NCBI GenBank assembly: GCA_029266455.1
Contig: JAQSWV010000019.1
Location: 1-42,671, forward strand
DNA from: Nocardioidaceae bacterium
GTDB taxonomy: Bacteria; Actinomycetota; Actinomycetes; Propionibacteriales; Nocardioidaceae
Reading direction: 5' to 3'
DNA: 42,671 bases
The notes beneath the pieces were generated by a model. The model did not search any database and had not been told where the DNA came from. It was given only the letters and a program-made list of their open reading frames with translations. Positions 27,815 to 42,671 of the stretch are shown here, piece by piece. The translations under genes and the position numbers were made by a program. Position 1 is the stretch's first letter, and every line of letters begins with the position of its first letter.

Positions 27815-29260
27815 TCAGTCGCCGTAGACGGCCGCGCACCAGGCCAGGTACGCCTCGTCGACCGCCGGGGACGGACTCGGTGCCGTCTCCACCGGAGTCG
27901 CCGACGGCGTCAGCTCGGCACCGGTTCCGTGCGCAGCCAGCAGGGCGGCGCCGGTGGCGGCGGCACTGCCGAGCTGGACCCAGTGCACCGACGCGCCGAC
28001 GCAGTCGGCCATCAGCTGCCGCACCACCGGGTCGCGACCTCCGCCCCCGACCAGAAGCACCCGCCGTGCGTCGGCGCCCAGCAGCTCGTAGGCACGCCGT
28101 ACCAGGAACACCTGCGCGTCGATCGCGGCCCGGGCGCGCTCCTCGACCCGGGCGCGTCCGGACCGTCCCAGCCAGCGCGGGCCGCGCAGCCACTCGCGTG
28201 GCGCGAGCCGACCGCGTTCGCCGGCCACGAAGGGCGCGAAGACGATCCCGTCCCCGGCGGTGGATGCCCTCTGCGCGGCGGCGACCAGCTCCGGCCAGGA
28301 CAGGCCCAGCTCGGCGCGGGCCCAGTCCAGGGCGAGGCCGGCGTTCTGCACCGCGACCATCGCGTAGTGGCCACCGCCCGCATCAGCCCACACATGGTGC
28401 TGCGGCAGTCCGCCGGCGGGGTCAGGCGGGGGCGAGGCAGGGGCGATGACCTGGGCACCGGTGCCGAGGTTGATCACCACGTCGCCGGGCCGCCAGCCGC
28501 CGATGCTGTGCTCCAGCGCGTACAGCGAGGCGGGAGTGTCACCGGCTCCGGCGACCACGGGCGCTTCCCCGTCTGCCGGCCCCGCCCACCGCCCCACCAC
28601 CGTGTCCGACGGCACCACGGCCGGAGTGAGCGTGCGCGCGGCTCCCGTGAGCGCCAGTGCGTCCGGCGACCAGGCACCCGCCGGTACGTCCCACAGCAGG
28701 GTCGCCGAGGCGTCGCTCGGGTCGGTCACGGTGTCGGGGACGGACTCACCGGTGAGCCCGCGCCGCACCCAGTCCTTGGGCAGCCAGACGCGCTCGGCAG
28801 CGACCAGGGTGTCCGCCTCGTGCTGGCCCAGCCAGCCGAGCACGGGCCCCGTCATCCCCGGTGAGAACGGGCTGCCGAGTCGCGCCTGCACCGGGGGAGG
28901 GAGCGCCGCCCAGCGCGGCTCCTGGTCGGCGGCCCGCCCGTCCGGCCACAGCACGGCCGGGCCGACGGGCGCGCCCATCCCGTCCACCAGCACCGTGCCG
29001 TGCATCTGCCCGGTGACGCCGATGCCTGCAGGAGCGCCTTTCCCGCGCTCCGCCAGCACGGCGTCGAGCCCGGTGCGCACCTCGTCCAGCCAGTCCTGCG
29101 GATCGGCCTCGGCCCTGTCGTCGAGCGGCCGGTGCACCGGCAGTGGCTTCTCGACGCTCCCCGCGACCGCGCCGTCGGAGTGCAGCGCGAGGATCTTCAA
29201 CGCGCTCGTCCCCACGTCGACTCCGACCCAGACGGGGGCCCGCGCGTTCCGCGGGGTCAC
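27815..29260 (-). CDS. xylB: Xylulokinase-like FGGY carbohydrate kinase
   Basis: 481 residues of the FGGY family, ATP-dependent phosphorylation of a sugar, probably D-xylulose to xylulose 5-phosphate. Visible: N-terminal phosphate loop WVGVDVGTSALKILAL, GVTGQMHGTVLVD, VLWPDGRA, the catalytic-Asp region VAGAGDTPASLYAL, NLGTGAQV and the C-terminal LLVGGGGRDP. The order matches XylB, though the C-terminus carries a Pro/Ser/Ala tail before VDEAYLAW. The GTG at 29260 overlaps the dinB stop (GTGA); upstream in-frame sequence lies inside dinB. No xylose isomerase or transporter is adjacent, and the dehydrogenase at 1174-2211 is far away, so substrate assignment rests on similarity only. Confidence 0.88.
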   Translation of the reverse strand: MTPRNARAPVWVGVDVGTSALKILALHSDGAVAGSVEKPLPVHRPLDDRAEADPQDWLDEVRTGLDAVLAERGKGAPAGIGVTGQMHGTVLVDGMGAPVGPAVLWPDGRAADQEPRWAALPPPVQARLGSPFSPGMTGPVLGWLGQHEADTLVAAERVWLPKDWVRRGLTGESVPDTVTDPSDASATLLWDVPAGAWSPDALALTGAARTLTPAVVPSDTVVGRWAGPADGEAPVVAGAGDTPASLYALEHSIGGWRPGDVVINLGTGAQVIAPASPPPDPAGGLPQHHVWADAGGGHYAMVAVQNAGLALDWARAELGLSWPELVAAAQRASTAGDGIVFAPFVAGERGRLAPREWLRGPRWLGRSGRARVEERARAAIDAQVFLVRRAYELLGADARRVLLVGGGGRDPVVRQLMADCVGASVHWVQLGSAAATGAALLAAHGTGAELTPSATPVETAPSPSPAVDEAYLAWCAAVYGD

Positions 29261-30396
29261 GTCGGCTCCCCGACGGTCGGCTCGCGGGCAGGAACTCTCT
29301 GCTCCAGCTCCGGCTTCTGCTCCAGCTCCGGCTTCTGCTCCGGCTCCGGCTTCTGCTCCGGCTCCGGTGCCGCTGACCGGCTGAACTCCGCCCGGACGCC
29401 CAGCAGCCGCACCGGCCGCCTGTCCTCGAACCGGTCCAGGGCTGCGAGCGCGGCGGCCTCGATGACGGCGGCATCGCTGGTCGCCTGCCCGAGCGGTTGT
29501 CCGTGCGTACTGGTGAAGAACGGCGCGTGCCGCACCTTGACCACCACGCGTACGACCGGACGCTGCTCGGCCACGACGTCGTCGACGACCCGCCGCGCCA
29601 GCACGGCGACCTCGCGGCGGACGTCGTCCCAGTCGACGAGATCGGTCTGGAAGGTGGTCTCCCGGCTGCGCGAGCGGGCGACGTACGGGGTCCCGACGAC
29701 CGGCGAGCGGTCGCGGCCGTTCGCGAGGCGCACCAGCCACGGTCCCGTGGCGGGACCGAAAGCTGCGGCCATCGCCTCGCGGTCGGCTGCCGCCAGCTGC
29801 CGGACGGTGTCGATCCCGAGCGCGGCCAGCTTCTTGGCGGTCTTGCGGCCGATGCCCCACAGCGCGTCGGTGGGGCGGTCGCCCAGAACGTCGAACCAGG
29901 ACGCGGTCGTGAGGCGGAAGACGCCCGCCGGCTTGCCCATGTCGGTGGCCAGCTTGGCCTGCAGCCGGTTGTCCCCGATGCCGATCGAGCAGTCCAGCGC
30001 CGTCGCCGCCCTCACCCGGCGCTGGACGTCACGGGCGTACGCCTCCGGGTCGTCGGTCTCGACGGCAAGGAACGCCTCGTCCCACCCCAGCACCTCGACG
30101 ACCGCGTCCAGCTCGCGCAACACGGCCATGACCGCGGCGGACACGGCGTCGTACGCCGGCTTGTCCACCGGCAGGAACACCGCGTCCGGGCACCGGCGGG
30201 CGGCCAGCCGCAGCGGGAGGCCGGAGTGCACGCCGTGGGCGCGAGCCTCGTAGGACGCGGTGCTCACCACCCCGCGCTTGGTCGGGTCGCCGTCGCCGCC
30301 CACCACGACCGGCAGTCCGCGCAGCTCGGGTCGGCGCAGCACCTCGACCGCCGCGAGGAACTGGTCGAGATCGACGTGGAGGACCCAACCGGCCAC
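29257..30396 (-). CDS. dinB: Y-family DNA polymerase IV, DinB2-like
   Basis: 379 residues. Error-prone translesion polymerase. Catalytic acids Asp9 (HVDLDQF) and Asp106-Glu107 (GWDEAF) are present, with the SYEARAHGVHSG fingers motif and helix-hairpin-helix GIGRKTAKKLAALGI. The steric-gate position is Leu14 (HVDLDQFLAAVE) where E. coli Pol IV has Phe13; mycobacterial DinB2 has the same Leu14 and incorporates ribonucleotides. No QLxLF-type clamp-binding motif is visible after RLLGVRAEF. The tail has four hexapeptides PE(P/L)EQ(K/R) at 344-367, then RVPAREPTVGEPT. The start is GTG at 30396 with GAGGT close upstream. Its stop overlaps xylB. Family-level knowledge supports the activity; this copy is untested. 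Confidence 0.92.
   Translation of the reverse strand: MAGWVLHVDLDQFLAAVEVLRRPELRGLPVVVGGDGDPTKRGVVSTASYEARAHGVHSGLPLRLAARRCPDAVFLPVDKPAYDAVSAAVMAVLRELDAVVEVLGWDEAFLAVETDDPEAYARDVQRRVRAATALDCSIGIGDNRLQAKLATDMGKPAGVFRLTTASWFDVLGDRPTDALWGIGRKTAKKLAALGIDTVRQLAAADREAMAAAFGPATGPWLVRLANGRDRSPVVGTPYVARSRSRETTFQTDLVDWDDVRREVAVLARRVVDDVVAEQRPVVRVVVKVRHAPFFTSTHGQPLGQATSDAAVIEAAALAALDRFEDRRPVRLLGVRAEFSRSAAPEPEQKPEPEQKPELEQKPELEQRVPAREPTVGEPT
29296..29367 (-). repeat. Four 18-nt coding repeats in dinB tail
   Basis: Four near-identical 18-nt units encode PEPEQK, PEPEQK, PELEQK and PELEQR in the C-terminal tail of the polymerase. The units differ by single bases, suggesting recent tandem duplication. Confidence 0.9.
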
Positions 30397-33386: not shown

Positions 33387-33881
33387 TCAGACCGGCCAGT
33401 GGTACGGCAGGTCGGGCGGCGTCTCGGGAAAGTACTGCCGGTAGTACTCCTCGTCCTTCCGCAGCAGGTTCGACCGGTGCGACTGGTGCAGCGCGTCCGA
33501 TCCCCACCACTCCGGGCGGGCGACAGTGTGCGGAACAACCCCTTGCGGATCGGCCAGGCCGGCGGCCGTGGCGATCGCGCGGACCTTCGGCGCGACGGTG
33601 TCGCGGTGCCCCCGGCGCTCCCACTCCGCGCAGACCTCCAGCGTGTAGCCGACGAGCGCGTCGGCGTGACCCCGCCACATCCGTACCGCCGGATGGTTGA
33701 CCCACCCCTTCGGCACGTACCTCTCCACCGGCCCACTGGTCGCACCGGGCGGCCACGGAGCCCGTAGCCCGGTCAGCACGGACAGGATCTGCAGGCACTC
33801 CACCCGCTGCTTCCCCAACCGCCGGCTGTCGAGCACCGCCGCACTGCGCGCATCGTCCGGGTAGGGGAGAAAGGACTGCAC
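33387..33881 (-). CDS. MSMEG_6728 / pyrimidine-dimer glycosylase-like protein
   Basis: 164 residues. MQSFLPYPDDARSAAVLDSRRLGKQRVECLQIL, VNHPAVRMWRGHADALVGY, the RPEWWGSDALHQSHRSNLLRK segment and the final PPDLPYHWPV match the family annotated as MSMEG_6728 or pyrimidine dimer DNA glycosylase. The family relation to T4 endonuclease V is remote and the activity of bacterial members is not well established, so a DNA-repair role is tentative. The start is GTG at 33881 with a weak ribosome site. A (TAC)7 tract lies 29-49 nt upstream of the start. Confidence 0.85.
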   Translation of the reverse strand: MQSFLPYPDDARSAAVLDSRRLGKQRVECLQILSVLTGLRAPWPPGATSGPVERYVPKGWVNHPAVRMWRGHADALVGYTLEVCAEWERRGHRDTVAPKVRAIATAAGLADPQGVVPHTVARPEWWGSDALHQSHRSNLLRKDEEYYRQYFPETPPDLPYHWPV

Positions 33882-36119: not shown

Positions 36120-36953
36120 TCATTCCGCAGGCTCCCCCGCGCGTGGCTCCACCCCCGCGTCTGCTTCGGCGCCTGACTCGGCGCTCCCGTCGGCCTCAGC
36201 CGGAGCTTCGTCCTGAGGCTCCTCGGCCGGCGGAGCCGTCGTCGGGGGCTCCGTGGTCGGCTCCTCCTCCTCCTCCTCGGGCGGCGCGGTGGTCGTCGGC
36301 TCGGTCTCGGTGGGCTCCGACTCCGGGGGCGTACTCGTCGTCTCGTCCGTGGGAGTCGGCTCCGTCGGCTCGGTGGAGTCGGGCTTCGTCGGTTCGGTCT
36401 TCTCCGGTTCCGCACTGCCGCCGAACGACGTCCGCGGCCCGTCCTTGCTCGAGCCGCCCGTGTAGGAGGAGACGGAGTGTCCGGAGACCAGCTCGAAGGT
36501 GAGGATCGCGCCCATCGCCAGCACGAATATCCCGGCGGCGGCCACGGCGATGCGTTTCCAGTTCAGTTTGCTGAAGACCTCGCGCCAGTTCGTCCCCCCA
36601 GTGGCCTCCTCCTCCGCCTCACGGACCTCCTCGTCGGCCAGGTCGCCCTGGTCCGGGGGCAGCCTCATCTCGGCGGTCGAGGTCGCCCCCGGTCGGGTGC
36701 GGCCACGCGTTCGCGCCACCTTCTTGGCGACCACGGCGGCGGCTGCGACGCGCTCCTTGCTGGCAGCCAGGTAGTACGTGTACACGGAGTTGCCAACGGT
36801 GACGACCACGCTTCCGATGGCGGCGCCGATGATCGTGCCGGCCACTCCCACGGTGGACAGCAGCACGGCGGACGACACCGCGGCCAACGCGCCACCGGCC
36901 GCCTGTATCCAGTTGATATCCAGCCGTCTCGGCTCGTCGGCTTGCTCAGTCAT
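36120..36953 (-). CDS. Membrane protein with Pro/Thr/Glu-rich tail
   Basis: 277 residues. The N-terminus (MTEQADEPRRLDINWIQAAGG) leads into a long hydrophobic, Gly/Ala/Val-rich stretch (about 20-65) that may be a hairpin of two segments. A charged loop follows (AEEEATGGTNWREVFSKLNWKR), then a transmembrane helix (about 136-158, IAVAAAGIFVLAMGAILTFELV) and a 110-residue extracytoplasmic tail of EPTEP/TTTAPPEEEEEE-type sequence. Similar proteins recur in actinobacteria without known function. The ATG is at 36953. The tail DNA contains short CCT and CTCGG repeats. Confidence 0.72.
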   Translation of the reverse strand: MTEQADEPRRLDINWIQAAGGALAAVSSAVLLSTVGVAGTIIGAAIGSVVVTVGNSVYTYYLAASKERVAAAAVVAKKVARTRGRTRPGATSTAEMRLPPDQGDLADEEVREAEEEATGGTNWREVFSKLNWKRIAVAAAGIFVLAMGAILTFELVSGHSVSSYTGGSSKDGPRTSFGGSAEPEKTEPTKPDSTEPTEPTPTDETTSTPPESEPTETEPTTTAPPEEEEEEPTTEPPTTAPPAEEPQDEAPAEADGSAESGAEADAGVEPRAGEPAE

Positions 36954-37152
36954 CTGATCCGCTATCTCCAGGTATGCCCACTGTGTTCGAGGCTAGATGA
37001 CGTACGGCACGGCACCCGTGTGGGCGCGCACGGGTGCTCATGACGTCGGGTATCTCGAGCGTGACACACCAGCAGCGGAGAGCCGAATTCTTGAGGTCAC
37101 TCGTGACGAGACTCACCCACAGGCACGCAGATCATGCTCGGCACGGGTGCGA

Positions 37153-38793
37153 TCAGTGTCCCCTGAGCCGCCTCAGCACAGCCGAGCCACCGACCTCCTC
37201 GACGAACGCAGGGTCGCCGCAGACCACCAGCTGGTCGCGGGCGCGGGACAGGCCGACATAAAGCCGCTCCCTCGACCGCTCGCCCACCGTTCGCTCGTTC
37301 AGCGCCAGCACGACCGCGCGCCGCTCCAGCCCCTTGAAGCTCAGCACATGCCCGTAGAACACCTGCTCGTCGTCCCAGAACGACTCCCAGTACGCCTCCG
37401 ACCCGGCGGCCTGACGGGCAGCCTGCTCGGGGTGCCGGCTGCCCGTGGCCAGCAGCGCGACATCCTGCGGCCGCCAGCCGGCGTCGAGCAGGGCATCCGC
37501 CTCGTCGTCGGCGCAGGCCAACGCGTCAGCGGTGAGACACTCGACCAAGCGCACCGCGGGACCATCGCCGCCGAGCAGGCGCATGCGCATCGTCGCGAGC
37601 GTGTTGAAGGACTCGGCGATCTGCACCGTGTTGCGGAGGTTGTGGTCGAGCACCACCGGCAGCAGCACGTCTGGGACGCCGCCGTACCTGGAGAACACCC
37701 GCTGCCCCTCGTCGGAGAACGCGTACAGGCCACCGGAGTCCGCGTCTTTGAGCGCCGCGAACAGGGCCGGCCACCACTGGTCGGCGAAGTCCTGAGCCTC
37801 GTCCACGACGATTGCGTCGAACCGGTGCCCCACCTCCTGGTCGGAGGCAAGCGTCACCATCTGCTCGGGCAGGCGGCGCTCCCAGTAGTCGGTGTCGTCG
37901 TCGCTTCCGGCCTCTGCACCCCACGCGGCACCCAGCCCGTGGAACGTGCCCACGTACGCCGGGACGTCCCTGCGGTGGGAGAAGGCACCCACCCGACGCT
38001 CCAGGAACGCTGCGAGGCCGCGGGAGTAGCACAGCAGAGCGACCCGCTGCCCGTCGCGGGAGAGACGACGCGCCTGCTCGACCGCCAGCCAGGTCTTGCC
38101 GCTACCGGCGCCGCCTCGCACCTCGACGCGAGGCAGCAGCCGGATGGCGTCGAGGATGACGGTCTGCTCCCGGGTGAGCCGGTCGGCGACGTCCTCGCGC
38201 TCCGCCGCGTCACCGATCAGGTCACGCTGCGGGCGACTCCGACCGCGCAGGATCTCGACGATCGTGGCGACGTCGTCGGTGGCCACCCGTCGGTTGTGCG
38301 TCTCCTGCTCGACCCCGATCGAGCGCAGCCGCTGGACGAGCTCAGGCAAGTCGTTTCTGCCCACCACCGCCCATCGCGGGCAGTCGGGCAACGCGAAGTC
38401 GTCGGCCACCGACAGGTACGGGAACACGACCGCATGACCCCAACGCACCCGCCCGCGACTCCCCCAGCGGTTGTCGCCCTCGAGGTAGTCGCGGAGCGCG
38501 TACATCGCCGTCCGCGCCTGTCCGACCGGGTCGATGCTGACGTCCTTGCCGTAGAGCTGCTGACGCCAGGACGTGCCGTCGTGGCGTACCCCGCTGCCCT
38601 TGACCTCCACCACCACGACACCCGCCCCGGGCATCACGACGGCGATGTCGATCTCGACGTCCTTGCTGTGGTTGGTGACGCGCTCGTTGGCGATCAGCAG
38701 GTCGTCAGGCCCCAGGTCTGCGCGCAGCCGCTCCCAGACCAGGCGCTCACTCGCGTTGACGAGCTTCGGCTCCCCCGGCCACAGCACCGGCAC
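37153..38793 (-). CDS. NERD-domain SF1 helicase
   Basis: 546 residues. A NERD (nuclease-related) domain at about 11-130 shows a PD-(D/E)xK-like set (EIDIAVV Asp49; VVVVEVKG Glu63-x-Lys65). A UvrD/Rep-like SF1 helicase core follows: Walker A GGAGSGKT (227-234), VVDEAQDF, the DHNLRNTVQIAE motif IV region, HVLSFKGLERRAVVL and YVGLSRARDQL. It should unwind and possibly cut DNA. The start is GTG at 38793, only 3 nt after the YbjN-like gene stop, so the two are co-translated or at least co-transcribed. NERD helicases occur in several defence and repair settings; which applies here is not visible. Confidence 0.9.
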   Translation of the reverse strand: MPVLWPGEPKLVNASERLVWERLRADLGPDDLLIANERVTNHSKDVEIDIAVVMPGAGVVVVEVKGSGVRHDGTSWRQQLYGKDVSIDPVGQARTAMYALRDYLEGDNRWGSRGRVRWGHAVVFPYLSVADDFALPDCPRWAVVGRNDLPELVQRLRSIGVEQETHNRRVATDDVATIVEILRGRSRPQRDLIGDAAEREDVADRLTREQTVILDAIRLLPRVEVRGGAGSGKTWLAVEQARRLSRDGQRVALLCYSRGLAAFLERRVGAFSHRRDVPAYVGTFHGLGAAWGAEAGSDDDTDYWERRLPEQMVTLASDQEVGHRFDAIVVDEAQDFADQWWPALFAALKDADSGGLYAFSDEGQRVFSRYGGVPDVLLPVVLDHNLRNTVQIAESFNTLATMRMRLLGGDGPAVRLVECLTADALACADDEADALLDAGWRPQDVALLATGSRHPEQAARQAAGSEAYWESFWDDEQVFYGHVLSFKGLERRAVVLALNERTVGERSRERLYVGLSRARDQLVVCGDPAFVEEVGGSAVLRRLRGH

Positions 38794-38796
38794 GGG

Positions 38797-39219
38797 TCAG
38801 GCGCCGATCTCGGCCGGGTACGGCGTACTGCCGTCGTACATCGCGGCGAGCAGAACGCCCAGGTCGTCTGCGGTGCTCGCGACCGCCATGCAGGCCAGGG
38901 ACAGAGACGTCGCGTTCACCTGGTCGGCCTCGACGCTGGTCTCGACGACGACCAGACCGCCTCGCCAGTAGGCCCGTCCCTCCACAAGGTGCGAGTTTGC
39001 CTCGTTGAGCTCGCGCAGCAGCCGCGCCGACTGCTTGACCCCGGACGCTGCGTGCGCGAAGACCTCGACCCGCCAGCGCGGATACGGCCGGACCGCGACC
39101 CAGCAGGCGGCCGTACCCCGCCGGAACGGCCAGTCACCGTCGTCGTCCCTGTACGCATGGCCGTCCCACAGCTCACGAAGGAGCGAGTCGACGTATGCCG
39201 AGAACCAATCGAACTGCAT
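38797..39219 (-). CDS. YbjN-like / T3SS-chaperone-fold protein
   Basis: 140 residues: MQFDWFSAYVDSLLRELWDGHAYRDDDGDWPF, then ACWVAVRPYPRWRVEVFAHAASGVKQSARLLRELNEAN, GRAYWRGGLVVVETSVEADQVNATSLSLAC and DDLGVLLAAMYDG. The alternation of two helices with an antiparallel sheet and the RLLRELNEANSHL helix match YbjN-type domains, which share the fold of type III secretion chaperones. The ATG at 39219 has GGGG upstream; longer in-frame starts run into the preceding gene. It ends 3 nt before the NERD helicase and starts 65 nt after the protease gene, on the same strand. A peptide-binding partner role for one of these neighbours is inferred. Confidence 0.75.
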   Translation of the reverse strand: MQFDWFSAYVDSLLRELWDGHAYRDDDGDWPFRRGTAACWVAVRPYPRWRVEVFAHAASGVKQSARLLRELNEANSHLVEGRAYWRGGLVVVETSVEADQVNATSLSLACMAVASTADDLGVLLAAMYDGSTPYPAEIGA

Positions 39220-39284
39220 CCGGCTGACCCCGTTCTGCACCCGTCTTCGGCTGCAGTACGCAGTCTTCCGCACGCCACCGACAG

Positions 39285-40661
39285 TCAACAGGGCGTGTGA
39301 CCGTCCCCTGAATGAGCCTCGACGTCGTCGATGAGCATCCGCCCGCCGTACTCGACGAAGGTGTAGTCCAGGGACCACTCCGTGCAGCCTTCACCGTCCG
39401 GGCCGAATCGGGGTGCCTGCACACTGACGAAGGTCACCCATGCCTGAGCCCGGGAGGGCGTACCGGTCACGTCGCGGATGACGGCGCCGAAGTCGAAGCT
39501 CGTCGCCAGGCTCTCTGCCAGGTCGCTGGGGTCTGGAATGGCGGGATACGTGGGCGCGAACTGCTCGACGACGGTGTAGTAGTCGCCGGCGTTGATGCCG
39601 TTGTAGTAAGCCGCCAGAGTGTCCTGGATCGGCAGCGTCACCGGCCCCTCGGGCGGAACCAGCTGCGGGCGAACCGTGAGCTGCGTGGGGCCCTCGGTCT
39701 CCGCGCAGTCCGGGGCGGCCGGTGCAGGCATGCTGGCCGGCGCGGCCAGCGACGGCGCCGCGGTCGAGATCTGCACGGCATAGCCGATGCCCTGTGAGCG
39801 CAGGCGCAACGCATCGACGACGCCGACGACCTCACCGCCCGTCGTGACGAGCGGCCCGCCCGAGTTCCCGGGATTGATGGCGGTGTCGGTCTGCAAGAGG
39901 CCGGTGCGGGAGCGGCCGTCGATCCGGATCGTGCGGTCGAGGCCGGAGACCACGCCGATCGTCAGCGTCTTCGGCTCGTCGAGCGGGAAGCCGATGGCCG
40001 CCACCGTGGTCCCGGGAGTCGGATCGGCGTCGGCCAGGCTGAACACGTGACCGCGGATTGGGCCGTCCACCCGGAGAACCGCGAGGTCGGTGACCGGGTC
40101 GATGCCCACGACCTGCGCCGGTCTGGGACCTGACGGCACGTCGACTGCTACTGCGCCCGCGCCTTCGACGACGTGTGCCGCGGTCGCGATGGTTCGAGGG
40201 CCGAGCAGGAAGCCCGTGCCGATGCCATCGCCCTCGCACGTGGACGCCAGGATGCGCAGCACGCCCGACTCGACGTCGGAGTACGTGTCCGCGAAGTCGG
40301 TGGGCGTCCCACCGGGGTCCTCGTCGGTCGGCGAGCCCGATGCCGGCGCGTCGCCTTGTGGAGCCTTGTTGTTGCCGTCTCCGCCCTTGGCCCGACCGGC
40401 CGACGCATCCGGTGCGCTGTCGCGGGTCAGCCAGAGCGCTGTTCCGCCGATCGACAGACCGGCGACCAGGAGCATCGCCATGGCGACGACAAGCCAGGTG
40501 AGGCCGGCGCTACGCCGCCGCTGCGGTTCCGGCTGCTGATGCCACGGCGGCTGCGGTGGGAACTGGGGACCACGTGGTGGGGCGGCCAGCAGAAGCCCGC
40601 ACCGTGAGCACTGCTGCGCGTCCGCTGACAACGGGGTGCCGCACCGCGGGCACGTTGTCAT
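39285..40661 (-). CDS. Zinc-ribbon, membrane-anchored trypsin-like protease
   Basis: 458 residues. An N-terminal zinc ribbon (Cys4, Cys7, Cys18, Cys21), a Pro/Gln linker, a transmembrane helix (about 53-78), a Gly/Asp/Lys-rich linker, then a trypsin-like (HtrA/S1C type) domain with His163 (ATAAHVV), Asp192 (DPVTDLAVLRV) and Ser267 (NPGNSGGPLV). Behind it is a SnoaL/NTF2-like domain (LAAYYNGINAGDYYTVVEQFAPTYP to the end). There is no PDZ domain. The zinc ribbon would be cytoplasmic and the protease outside. The ATG at 40661 has a very strong GGAGGGGG site. Upstream of, and on the same strand as, the YbjN-like and NERD-helicase genes. Confidence 0.9.
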   Translation of the reverse strand: MTTCPRCGTPLSADAQQCSRCGLLLAAPPRGPQFPPQPPWHQQPEPQRRRSAGLTWLVVAMAMLLVAGLSIGGTALWLTRDSAPDASAGRAKGGDGNNKAPQGDAPASGSPTDEDPGGTPTDFADTYSDVESGVLRILASTCEGDGIGTGFLLGPRTIATAAHVVEGAGAVAVDVPSGPRPAQVVGIDPVTDLAVLRVDGPIRGHVFSLADADPTPGTTVAAIGFPLDEPKTLTIGVVSGLDRTIRIDGRSRTGLLQTDTAINPGNSGGPLVTTGGEVVGVVDALRLRSQGIGYAVQISTAAPSLAAPASMPAPAAPDCAETEGPTQLTVRPQLVPPEGPVTLPIQDTLAAYYNGINAGDYYTVVEQFAPTYPAIPDPSDLAESLATSFDFGAVIRDVTGTPSRAQAWVTFVSVQAPRFGPDGEGCTEWSLDYTFVEYGGRMLIDDVEAHSGDGHTPC

Positions 40662-41134
40662 GACCGCCCCCTCCACCCTGCATGTGCTGCTCGACCACGG
40701 AATTGTCACATCTCGGCGCGCTGTGATCTATGGAATGGCCTGCGCGCGCCGGGCACGATCGGGAGGTCTTCAAGGCGGTGGGCCTCGCCGCCTGAGGCCC
40801 CGTGGCGAGTGGTATCAGTGCCACGTCCAGTGATTCCGCGGAATCACTTTTCCCTGAGCGCACGGCCATCCGTCTCCGGCCGCTCACGCCCGGGGAGGCC
40901 GCTGGACCGGCTGAGACCGCGCCCGATGCCTGCTGAGGAAGATCGGGCAGCCGGTGAGCGGGCTCGGAGGTCGCGGCTTCGGCCAACCGCACCGCGACCG
41001 GGCCGACGTCGACCGGCTGGATGCGCCAGCTCCGCGGCATGGGCGCGATGGGCAACGCCGTCATCCGGCGGAACTGAGCGTCGCAGAACTCGTGGACCTG
41101 CGCGCTGCTGCGCAGGCTCAGCGGGTCGAGCCGA
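40662..41134. other. Gene-poor 470-nt region with a palindrome
   Basis: Lies between the SDR and protease genes, both on the minus strand. Open frames on either strand are Arg/Pro/Ala-rich and have no recognised domain. It should contain the protease promoter. It includes a perfect 20-bp palindrome (40829-40848). A decayed gene cannot be excluded, but no family match is visible by eye. Confidence 0.5.
40829..40848. promoter_or_regulatory. Perfect 20-bp palindrome
   Basis: AGTGATTCCGCGGAATCACT is its own reverse complement. It lies 168 nt upstream of the protease start. On the plus strand it is followed by TTTCCC; as RNA it could make an 8-bp stem with a CGCG loop. No plus-strand gene ends nearby, so an operator for a dimeric regulator is at least as likely as a terminator. 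Confidence 0.55.
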
Positions 41135-41920
41135 TCAAGGACCCGGAGTCCGGCGGTCCTCGGTCACCGCATTTCCACCGTCGACGACCAGCAGCTCGCC
41201 GGTGACGTACGAGGCCTCCCTGCTGGCCAGGAAGCCGACGGCGGCCGCGACTTCGTCAGGGCGGCCCGACCGGCCGACCGGGGAGGCCAGCCCCATCCGA
41301 TGCTCCTCCTTCGAGACTGACGGCGTGCCGATCCATCCCGGCGCGACAGCGTTGACGGTGACACCCCGGGGAGCGACCTCGACGGCCAGCGCCCGGGTGA
41401 GGCCGACCATCCCGGCCTTCGCGGCGTGGTAGGCGGCGTCGTCGGGGAAGGCCGTGAGCGGCCCGGATGTCGAGGCCACATTGACGATCCGGCCGTCGCC
41501 CGCGGCGAGCATGGCAGGCAGCACGAGCCGGCTCATCGTCACAGCGGTGAGCAGGTTGCGATCCAGACTGTGCCGCCAGTGGTCCGGCGTGAGGTCGAGG
41601 AACCCGCCGCCGGAGTCGGGATCCGACACCGACGTCATTCCGGCGTTGTTGACGAGCACCCCCAGTGAGCCCCATCGACTGGTGACCGCGTCCACGAGCG
41701 TCCGCGCCTGCTCGAGGTCGGTGAGGTCGGCTGCGTGCGCCATCGCCAGCGCGCCCGACCGCTCCAGCTCCGCGGCACGCTCGTGACACCGGTCGGTGGT
41801 CGACGTGAGGGCGACCTGTGCCCCCATGGCGGCGAGCAGGCGGGCGATGGCGAAGCCGATACCGTCCGGTCCACCACTGCCGGTGACCAGCGCGACGTGG
41901 CCATCGAGGCGGAAGGGCAT
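41135..41920 (-). CDS. Short-chain dehydrogenase/reductase
   Basis: 261 residues, classical SDR. Cofactor motif TGSGGPDGIG (13-22), with two extra residues compared with TGxxxGIG, NNAG (91-94), catalytic Ser near 150-152 (IVNVASTSG), Tyr164 and Lys168 (YHAAK), and the C-terminal PGWIGTP and GELLVVDGG. Closest to 3-oxoacyl-ACP reductase/FabG-like SDRs, but substrate cannot be read. The ATG at 41920 starts at the fold; longer in-frame starts overlap the regulator gene. It lies 26 nt after the XRE gene on the same strand. Confidence 0.9.
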   Translation of the reverse strand: MPFRLDGHVALVTGSGGPDGIGFAIARLLAAMGAQVALTSTTDRCHERAAELERSGALAMAHAADLTDLEQARTLVDAVTSRWGSLGVLVNNAGMTSVSDPDSGGGFLDLTPDHWRHSLDRNLLTAVTMSRLVLPAMLAAGDGRIVNVASTSGPLTAFPDDAAYHAAKAGMVGLTRALAVEVAPRGVTVNAVAPGWIGTPSVSKEEHRMGLASPVGRSGRPDEVAAAVGFLASREASYVTGELLVVDGGNAVTEDRRTPGP

Positions 41921-41946
41921 GGCCAGACTCTGGCAGGGTCCGAGGC

Positions 41947-42459
41947 TCAGGCCCGGCCGCCGGCGATCCGCTCGGCCACCACGCCCTCCACCACCCGCTG
42001 CTGCGCACGGTGGAGAGCGTCCAGCCGCCTGTCGACAGGCAGCTCGCCGATCAGCGCGGCGACCTGGTCCACCACGTCCCTGGTCCGCACCCTCGACGCG
42101 CGCGGCGGCTTGCTCGGAGCCTCGTAGTCGGGGTTGGCCGTCCACATCGCGTCGGTCAGCATCGGCGCCGCCGTGGGAGCCGCCCGTGGCGGCAGGGTCA
42201 CGGCCATCTCGTCGTACGCGATCGCGGCGGACAGCTCAGCAGGGTCGAGCTGCAGAGCGTGCGCGAGCCGGCCGAGCGACTTGTGCGACGGCAGCCGGTA
42301 GCCGGTCTCCAGCTGGGAGACGTACGGGTACGACAACCCGCTGGCGGCGACCACGTCGCGCCGGCTCAGGCCCAGCTCGCGGCGACGCGTCGCGATCCGG
42401 CGACCGAGCTCCTCGGCCCGCGGGTCCTTGGAGCCGGCGGTGTCTCGAGATGCGGCCAT
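41947..42459 (-). CDS. XRE-family transcriptional regulator
   Basis: 170 residues. An N-terminal HTH_3 domain (ELGRRIATRRRELGLSRRDVVAASGLSYPYVSQLETGYRLPSHKSLGRLAHAL) is followed by a segment without known domain containing MLTDAMWTANPDYEAPSKPPRASRVRTRDVVDQVAALIGELPVD, so there is no obvious ligand-binding fold. The start ATG at 42459 has GAGGAG at good spacing; ATG 42486 is possible. Upstream is an 86-nt divergent gap with two copies of GGAGCATAATG, possible operator or -10 elements. Likely controls itself and the divergent probable VWA gene; the SDR gene follows on the same transcript. Confidence 0.87.
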   Translation of the reverse strand: MAASRDTAGSKDPRAEELGRRIATRRRELGLSRRDVVAASGLSYPYVSQLETGYRLPSHKSLGRLAHALQLDPAELSAAIAYDEMAVTLPPRAAPTAAPMLTDAMWTANPDYEAPSKPPRASRVRTRDVVDQVAALIGELPVDRRLDALHRAQQRVVEGVVAERIAGGRA

Positions 42460-42505
42460 TATGCTCCTCGCATTTGCATTCTCCATGCCATGTGCATTAT
42501 GCTCC
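42457..42505 (-). promoter_or_regulatory. Direct repeats GGAGCATAATG at the XRE start
   Basis: Two 11-nt copies at 42457-42467 and 42495-42505 (38-nt period) on the minus strand. The inner copy holds the start codon and part of the ribosome site; the outer contains CATAAT, which could act as a -10 box. They could be autoregulatory sites. Confidence 0.4.
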
Positions 42506-42545
42506 GACCATACCAGCCCGCCACGCCACGCACCTAGGGGTAGCC

Positions 42546-42671
42546 ATGAAGCTCGATGCCTTGCTCGCTGTCGACGTCCTCGCACTCGAGACCGACGACA
42601 CGCTGTCCACACTGGTCCAGCTCACCGCTCCCCCGGCACCTCACGCCGCGGCTCCCCGCACGCCGAGCACG
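42546..42671 (+). CDS. Start of probable VWA-domain protein (truncated by window end)
   Basis: The reading frame runs open to the right edge: 42 codons starting MKLDALLAVDVLALETDDTL, then STLVQLTAPPAP and a Pro/Ala-rich end. AGGGG lies 8 nt before the ATG. The pattern 'L-D-V-x-x-L-A-x-E-T-D-D-x-x-x-x-L-V-x-L-T-A-P' is what I recall from the N-termini of actinobacterial VWA (von Willebrand A) proteins in which the VWA domain follows directly; the MIDAS motif itself would lie outside the window. Divergent from the XRE gene. Confidence 0.55.
   Translation, partial: MKLDALLAVDVLALETDDTLSTLVQLTAPPAPHAAAPRTPST

What the first reader, a model, noticed from the sequence alone, without database searches (positions are those of the whole stretch)
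37153..40661. Protease / YbjN-like / NERD-helicase gene set
Three adjacent minus-strand genes encode a membrane serine protease with a cytoplasmic zinc ribbon and an external SnoaL-like domain, a YbjN chaperone-fold protein, and a NERD-SF1 helicase 3 nt downstream of it. A nuclease-helicase paired with a peptide-binding protein and a protease resembles the modular make-up of defence or envelope-stress systems, and I know of no named system with this composition.
Basis: partly seen in the sequence, partly recalled or inferred. Interest (0 to 1): 0.65.

Follow-up and report, generated by a model that had tools for sequence, protein, structure and literature searches.

The report
Chaperone–nuclease-helicase arm of ADP-ribose system
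The helicase and its small partner protein look like one half of a larger bacterial gene cluster, predicted but apparently untested, that removes ADP-ribose tags from proteins and may fight phages; the neighbouring protease is probably a local add-on.

Summary
The three minus-strand genes are real, at the stated coordinates and with essentially the stated domains (NERD-SF1 helicase; TY-Chap1/YbjN protein; zinc ribbon-TM-trypsin-NTF2-like protease). The unit is drawn wrongly. The helicase and a TY-Chap gene recur as co-directional neighbours under 300 nt apart in 19 of 56 related loci of the order; the protease accompanies the helicase in 0 of 63 other loci and 0 of 80 named ones. The HTH gene at 41947-42459 belongs to the set, and the window's last 126 bases are the start of a vWA gene whose remainder apparently opens another contig of the same genome (C99), followed by a DSP phosphatase and an ADP-ribosylglycohydrolase (ARG). 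One contiguous locus of another genus (L071) has ARG-DSP-vWA | HTH-TY-Chap-NERD-helicase in one piece. So the finding is most likely the left arm of an ARG-centric ADP-ribose conflict system, a kind predicted in PMC9503650, with a nuclease-helicase as probable effector. Against: 36 of 63 helicase loci hold no other component nearby, loci are not dense defence islands, the contig junction is inferred, and I found no experiment. New variant of a known, untested kind.

The parts
37153..38793 (-). NERD (restriction-endonuclease-fold) nuclease fused to SF1 helicase; probable effector
38797..39219 (-). single-domain TY-Chap1 (YbjN/T3SS-chaperone-like) protein; stop 3 nt before the helicase start
   Evidence: a 40% identical TY-Chap1 sits next to a 65% identical helicase in L174
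39285..40661 (-). zinc ribbon-TM-trypsin(S1C)-NTF2-like protease; probable accessory, not conserved with the helicase
41135..41920 (-). SDR dehydrogenase; possible accessory (a 55% identical SDR is divergent from the helicase in L142)
41947..42459 (-). HTH regulator, full-length relative of the HTH heading the TY-Chap-helicase operon in 5 genomes
42460..42545 (.). divergent intergenic region between HTH and vWA; the one promoter-like match of 36950-42671 falls here but overlaps the called HTH start
42546..42671 (+). first 42 codons of a vWA gene, cut by the contig end; the rest is inferred to be G000:C99:1-876, followed there by a DSP phosphatase and ARG

Best explanation
The locus is the left arm of a divergently transcribed ARG-centric ADP-ribose conflict system: [NERD-helicase <- TY-Chap1 <- (protease, SDR) <- HTH] | [vWA -> DSP phosphatase -> ARG]. 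Inferred mechanism: the HTH protein controls the divergent promoter region; on infection or another ADP-ribosylating attack ARG strips ADP-ribose from host proteins and the DSP phosphatase processes the product; vWA and TY-Chap bind modified or misfolded target proteins; the NERD-SF1 enzyme, translated right behind TY-Chap, unwinds and cuts foreign (or host) nucleic acid as a second line, probably steered by the chaperone. The protease is a lineage-specific accessory. Shown by sequence: gene content, pairing, motif conservation, a contiguous template locus. Inferred: the contig junction, regulation, substrates, the antiphage role.
For: TY-Chap adjacent to the helicase, same strand, under 300 nt, in 19 of 56 order-level loci (18 upstream, 1 downstream) plus the window; in the window's family 20 of 46 TY-Chap1 loci, the window's included, lie within 1 kb of a helicase, 20 of 20 on the same strand. 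Within about 7 kb of 63 other helicases: TY-Chap 22, ARG 11, vWA 7, Nudix-type regulator 6, against about 0.4 each if 1.5 copies per 4-Mb genome fell at random (loci are related, so P values there are too small). Among 80 named loci, partly the same genomes: ARG 9, TY-Chap 6, Nudix-type 5. vWA N-terminus at the window end: profile E=2.4e-6, best of 2000 shuffles 0.12; the one match of a related vWA protein in the own genome covers its residues 139-427 of 431 and begins at base 7 of C99. Contiguous template L071: helicase 54%, HTH 37%, vWA 34%, DSP 52%, ARG 56% identical. The closest short TY-Chap1 relatives of the order search (L119-L121, 35-39%) sit in TY-Chap1-Nudix-ARG operons.
Against: 36 of 63 other helicase loci hold none of the components sought within about 7 kb, and 3 of 80 named loci have an adjacent TY-Chap (some contigs are short). 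The window's TY-Chap has no pairwise blastp match at E<=1e-4 to those of L071, which are two-domain or TY-Chap3 types, and L071 has neither SDR nor protease but a further 175-aa gene. TY-Chap1 also exists as an unlinked gene in a second family of the order. At most 4 of 107 scanned neighbour proteins match PADLOC at E<=1e-20. The window regulator is a plain HTH, not Nudix or WYL. C86 and C99 are separate contigs. No expression or phenotype data.
Confidence: 0.6

Rival explanations
1. The same gene system, but aimed at non-phage ADP-ribosylation (endogenous enzymes or toxins of rival bacteria) or general ADP-ribose/DNA-damage stress; the nuclease-helicase then does repair or clean-up rather than antiviral killing.
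For: The same genomic evidence; a ribonucleotide reductase gene neighbours ARG in the own genome and occurs in 10 of 175 stretches examined, not all independent; the loci are not rich in known defence genes.
Against: REase-ARP (2), PDDEXK_13 (3) and GmrSD_N (2) proteins are among 107 scanned neighbours; patchy occurrence and broken helicase copies fit conflict genes better than core repair.
Confidence: 0.2
2. The helicase is a stand-alone actinobacterial NERD-SF1 repair or defence enzyme; its closeness to TY-Chap and ARG genes is a side effect of shared insertion sites.
For: 36 of 63 loci lack the other components; an 11-row clade of helicases from a second family of the order has no TY-Chap link.
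Against: Co-directional TY-Chap neighbours in separate helicase clades (at least 4 changes of the label on the tree, at least 2 forced by well-supported branches), with differing flanks and gaps of -4 to 89 nt where TY-Chap is upstream.
Confidence: 0.12
3. One reading: protease, YbjN-like protein and helicase form a three-part defence or envelope-stress system with the protease as sensor or trigger.
For: Same strand; 65 nt between the protease stop and the TY-Chap ATG; catalytic triad in place. The protease neighbour of the closest relative L174 cannot be checked, its contig starts 130 nt before TY-Chap.
Against: 0 of 63 and 0 of 80 helicase loci hold a related protease at E<=1e-10; the four relatives that share the C-terminal domain (L130-L132, L135) lack the aligned His and Asp and lie elsewhere.
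Confidence: 0.08

Closest known systems
ARG-centric ADP-ribose conflict systems (prediction, PMC9503650 section 3.8)
   Same: ARG, rhodanese/DSP-type phosphatase, vWA and TY-Chap chaperones, REase-fold nuclease that may be linked to helicases
   Different: The window regulator is a plain HTH; a NERD-SF1 fusion and an S1C-NTF2 membrane protease are present. 'NERD' and 'protease' do not occur in the paper's main text; its figures and supplements were not seen
RT-associated NERD-helicase of DRT systems (PADLOC RTasNERD-Hel)
   Same: Best PADLOC match of the helicase, E=2.2e-36
   Different: No RVT_1 match in the own genome at E<=0.01
CmdTAC toxin-antitoxin-chaperone (PMC11618068, abstract read)
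   Same: A chaperone as infection sensor gating an effector, with ADP-ribose chemistry
   Different: CmdT adds ADP-ribose, here ARG is predicted to remove it; the CmdC chaperone fold is not TY-Chap (recalled)
Gabija GajB and Schlafen 11
   Same: Nearest solved sequence (GajB, E=1.2e-8) and nearest folds (SLFN11), through the SF1 helicase part
   Different: A NERD nuclease instead of a Schlafen core; GajA was not searched for

Membership tests
ARG-centric ADP-ribose conflict system | ADP-ribosylglycohydrolase gene | tested here: inconclusive
   Present at G000:C99:1754-3241 (Pfam E=3.8e-50) but on another contig; linkage inferred from the split vWA gene and L071
ARG-centric ADP-ribose conflict system | coupled phosphatase (a little over 55% in the paper) | tested here: inconclusive
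   DSPc-like gene between vWA and ARG on C99: Pfam E=8.3e-5, below the curated cut-off; 52% identical to the L071 gene, which passes it; same contig caveat
ARG-centric ADP-ribose conflict system | Nudix or WYL regulator (over 42% in the paper, so not obligatory) | tested here: not met
   The regulator at the locus is HTH_31/HTH_3
ARG-centric ADP-ribose conflict system | predicted peptide-binding chaperone (vWA, TY-Chap, SseB) | tested here: met
   TY-Chap1 and the vWA N-terminus in the window
ARG-centric ADP-ribose conflict system | variable REase-fold effector, possibly with helicase | tested here: met
   NERD-SF1 helicase with conserved active-site residues; NERD as REase fold is recalled
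ARG-centric ADP-ribose conflict system | no coupled ADP-ribosyltransferase | tested here: inconclusive
   None among the genes scanned beside the helicase and beside ARG; not every ORF was scanned
DRT (reverse transcriptase with NERD-helicase) | reverse transcriptase | tested here: not met
   0 RVT_1 matches in the own genome, 97% complete
Gabija | GajA next to GajB | not tested
   GajB matches come from the helicase part; no GajA search was run
any antiphage system | protection against phage | not testable with these tools
   needs plaque assays

The most novel reading that the evidence does not exclude
A chaperone-gated nuclease-helicase of ADP-ribose immunity: TY-Chap holds the NERD-SF1 enzyme in check while ARG keeps host proteins free of ADP-ribose; phage ADP-ribosyltransferases overload ARG, TY-Chap binds ADP-ribosylated clients and releases or aims the nuclease, and in this lineage a membrane protease adds an envelope signal. 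It would be a host system that senses viral ADP-ribosylation itself.
Probability: 0.18. Interest if true: 0.8.

Novelty: new variant of a known kind. Interest (0 to 1): 0.52.

Why it matters
Host systems that would undo phage ADP-ribosylation were proposed from genomics in 2022 (PMC9503650), and my searches found no experiment on TY-Chap or on such ARG systems (open-access library only). This locus family gives a compact, divergent cassette, with one contiguous example (L071) and an intact nuclease-helicase beside the chaperone, in which the idea can be tested directly: does it blunt phage ADP-ribosyltransferases, and does the chaperone control the nuclease? It also adds a NERD-SF1 helicase family, widespread in actinobacteria, as a probable effector.

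Tried and rejected
Three-gene unit with the protease: rejected as conserved unit. DRT membership from the best PADLOC hit: rejected, no reverse transcriptase. RT-Protease and Avs1b PADLOC hits of the protease: only the trypsin domain aligns. Dense defence island: not supported, at most 4 of 107 neighbour proteins at E<=1e-20 (107 of the 175 neighbours listed were scanned, chosen to stay within the limits and leaving out components already known; no control set was scanned). Plasmid or phage carriage: 1 plasmid record (33% identity) and 1 unannotated 'Bacteriophage sp.' record (41%). A scan of genome contigs with TY-Chap1 alone found nothing; the helicase profile worked. First gene calling chose a shadow ORF opposite the helicase and was replaced; in L063 the second calling still missed the helicase, which was placed by tblastn. 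One helper profile named 'macro' is in fact a SIR2_2-type protein. Family search PF08378 in the own genome did not list the window's helicase although Pfam finds its NERD domain, so negatives of that search are not proof. WYL paper PMC10693628 (passages): not relevant.
Full report
1. Observation. The three ORFs are present as described. Pfam: NERD E=2.9e-10 and SF1 domains in the helicase, TY-Chap1 E=1.3e-24 in the middle protein, Trypsin_2 E=1.1e-26 and a zinc ribbon in the protease. The NERD residues E16, E47, D49, E63-x-K65, Q92, Walker A and B and the later SF1 motifs are conserved across 64 aligned helicases. The AlphaFold2 helicase model has mean pLDDT 89; its best PDB folds are Schlafen 11 and other SF1 helicases.

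2. Pairing. In 245 genomes of the order, 75 have some match to the helicase at E<=0.001; I fetched the 56 full-length ones outside the own genome with about 7 kb on each side where contigs allowed. A TY-Chap gene lies on the same strand under 300 nt away in 19 of 56, upstream in 18 and downstream in one (L063). Those tested by Pfam are TY-Chap3+TY-Chap1 proteins, one with Chap-C, or separate TY-Chap3 genes, whereas the window has a single TY-Chap1. In the window's family, 46 TY-Chap1 loci occur in 39 genomes and 20 of 46, the window's included, lie within 1 kb of a helicase, 20 of 20 co-directional. On the helicase tree the adjacent-TY label needs at least 4 changes, of which well-supported branches force at least 2, so it is neither one copy of one event nor universal. 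In 80 named loci 3 have an adjacent TY-Chap and 6 have one nearby. The closest, L174 (a Nocardioidaceae MAG, helicase 65% identical), has a short TY-Chap1, 40% identical to the window's, directly upstream.

3. Wider system. Around 63 other helicases (56 of the order, 7 of the 395 other genomes searched in the phylum at E<=1e-60) profile searches find TY-Chap in 22, ARG in 11, vWA in 7, Nudix-type regulator in 6, ARPP in 2; 36 have none of the components. Under an assumed 1.5 copies per 4-Mb genome about 0.4 of 63 would be expected for each; relatedness makes the printed P values too small. Four of the seven loci from other families carry ARG (L143, L144, L145, L148). Pfam confirms ARG, DSPc, VWA, NUDIX with NrtR_WHD, and ARPP-1 on examples. 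These are the components of the ARG-centric systems of PMC9503650 (section 3.8 read in full), which also defined TY-Chap1.

4. The window's own system. The HTH gene (41947-42459) is related over its length to the HTH that heads the TY-Chap-helicase operon in five genomes (L066, L067, L068, L071, L079; 28-37% identity), each with a divergent vWA gene. At the window end, 86 nt from the HTH start, an ORF opens on the plus strand (42546-42671). Its 42 residues match a profile of vWA N-termini of relatives at E=2.4e-6, against 0.12 for the best of 2000 shuffles. A related vWA protein has one match in the own genome, covering its residues 139-427 of 431, from base 7 of contig C99. C99 then carries a DSP-like phosphatase and ARG. 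Measured on L171 about 110 residues are missing between the pieces. L071 shows the whole arrangement on one contig, with a further 175-aa gene between DSP and vWA: helicase 54%, HTH 37%, vWA 34%, DSP 52%, ARG 56% identical. The window's TY-Chap has no pairwise blastp match to those of L071 at E<=1e-4, and SDR and protease are absent there. I conclude, without a physical junction, that the window holds one arm and C99 the other.

5. Protease and SDR. A related protease (E<=1e-10) is found in 0 of 63 other helicase loci and 0 of 80 named ones. The relatives sharing its C-terminal domain (L130-L132, L135) lack the aligned His and Asp, two of the four also the Ser; L149-L151, which hold three of them with flanks, have no helicase or TY-Chap and neighbours that by eye look like envelope and metabolism genes. 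A 55% identical SDR is divergent from the helicase in L142, and a 49% identical one lies 2.8 kb from it in L207, so the SDR may be a loose associate.

6. Mechanism. Shown: composition, co-direction, active-site conservation. Inferred: regulation by HTH, ADP-ribose removal by ARG, client binding by vWA and TY-Chap, nucleic-acid attack by the NERD-SF1 enzyme. The paper proposes the first, third and last kinds of step for its systems in general; the steering of the nuclease by the chaperone is my inference, by analogy with the capsid-triggered chaperone of CmdTAC (PMC11618068, abstract).

7. Against. Most helicase relatives are alone; TY-Chap1 is also an unlinked gene in another family of the order; at most 4 of 107 scanned neighbours match PADLOC strongly, although REase-ARP, PDDEXK_13, GmrSD_N and ARPP-1 proteins occur among them; the regulator differs from the Nudix/WYL types; nothing has been tested at the bench.

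8. Novelty. TY-Chap occurs in one relevant paper of the library. [quoted passage not shown] NERD is not named in its main text, but its figures and supplements were not available, so a NERD-helicase example there cannot be excluded. I file this as a new variant of a known, untested kind.

Noticed in passing
L152 (own contig C99) 3759-8335; also L095, L109, L122, L127, L160, L165, L194, L195, L200: A ribonucleotide reductase gene, in several with nrdR, lies near these loci in 10 of 175 stretches examined (not all independent): a possible insertion hotspot. The own copy carries an intein-like LAGLIDADG insert.
   Followed up: partly
L144:11940-13475, L165:4310-5803; matches in L226 and L247: A SIR2_2-type protein beside the NERD-helicase or its remnant, an NAD-linked candidate effector in the same neighbourhoods (Pfam run on the L144 protein only).
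   Followed up: partly
second family (f2) of the order: A TY-Chap1 protein of roughly 290-380 residues with very high profile scores, about one per genome and apparently unlinked to the helicase: a probable core gene worth a study of its own.
   Followed up: no
window 36997-39300 (+): A 767-aa open frame lies opposite helicase and TY-Chap; a naive codon score preferred it to the real gene. Likely a high-GC shadow ORF.
   Followed up: partly
G000:C107:4374-4595: The only PF08378 match listed for the own genome is this short protein, which by context looks like a YraN/UPF0102 homologue (recalled); the window helicase was not listed, a sensitivity limit of the search.
   Followed up: no
window 33387-33881 (-) and 29257-30396 (-): A pyrimidine-dimer DNA glycosylase-like protein (Pyr_excise) and a Y-family DNA polymerase in the same contig.
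   Followed up: no
phage record MT835574.1, 6759-8396: An unannotated 'Bacteriophage sp.' record from human faeces encodes a 41% identical full-length helicase relative.
   Followed up: no
window 36120-36953 (-): A 277-aa membrane protein with a long acidic, low-complexity tail directly downstream of the helicase; no related protein was found in the helicase loci.
   Followed up: partly
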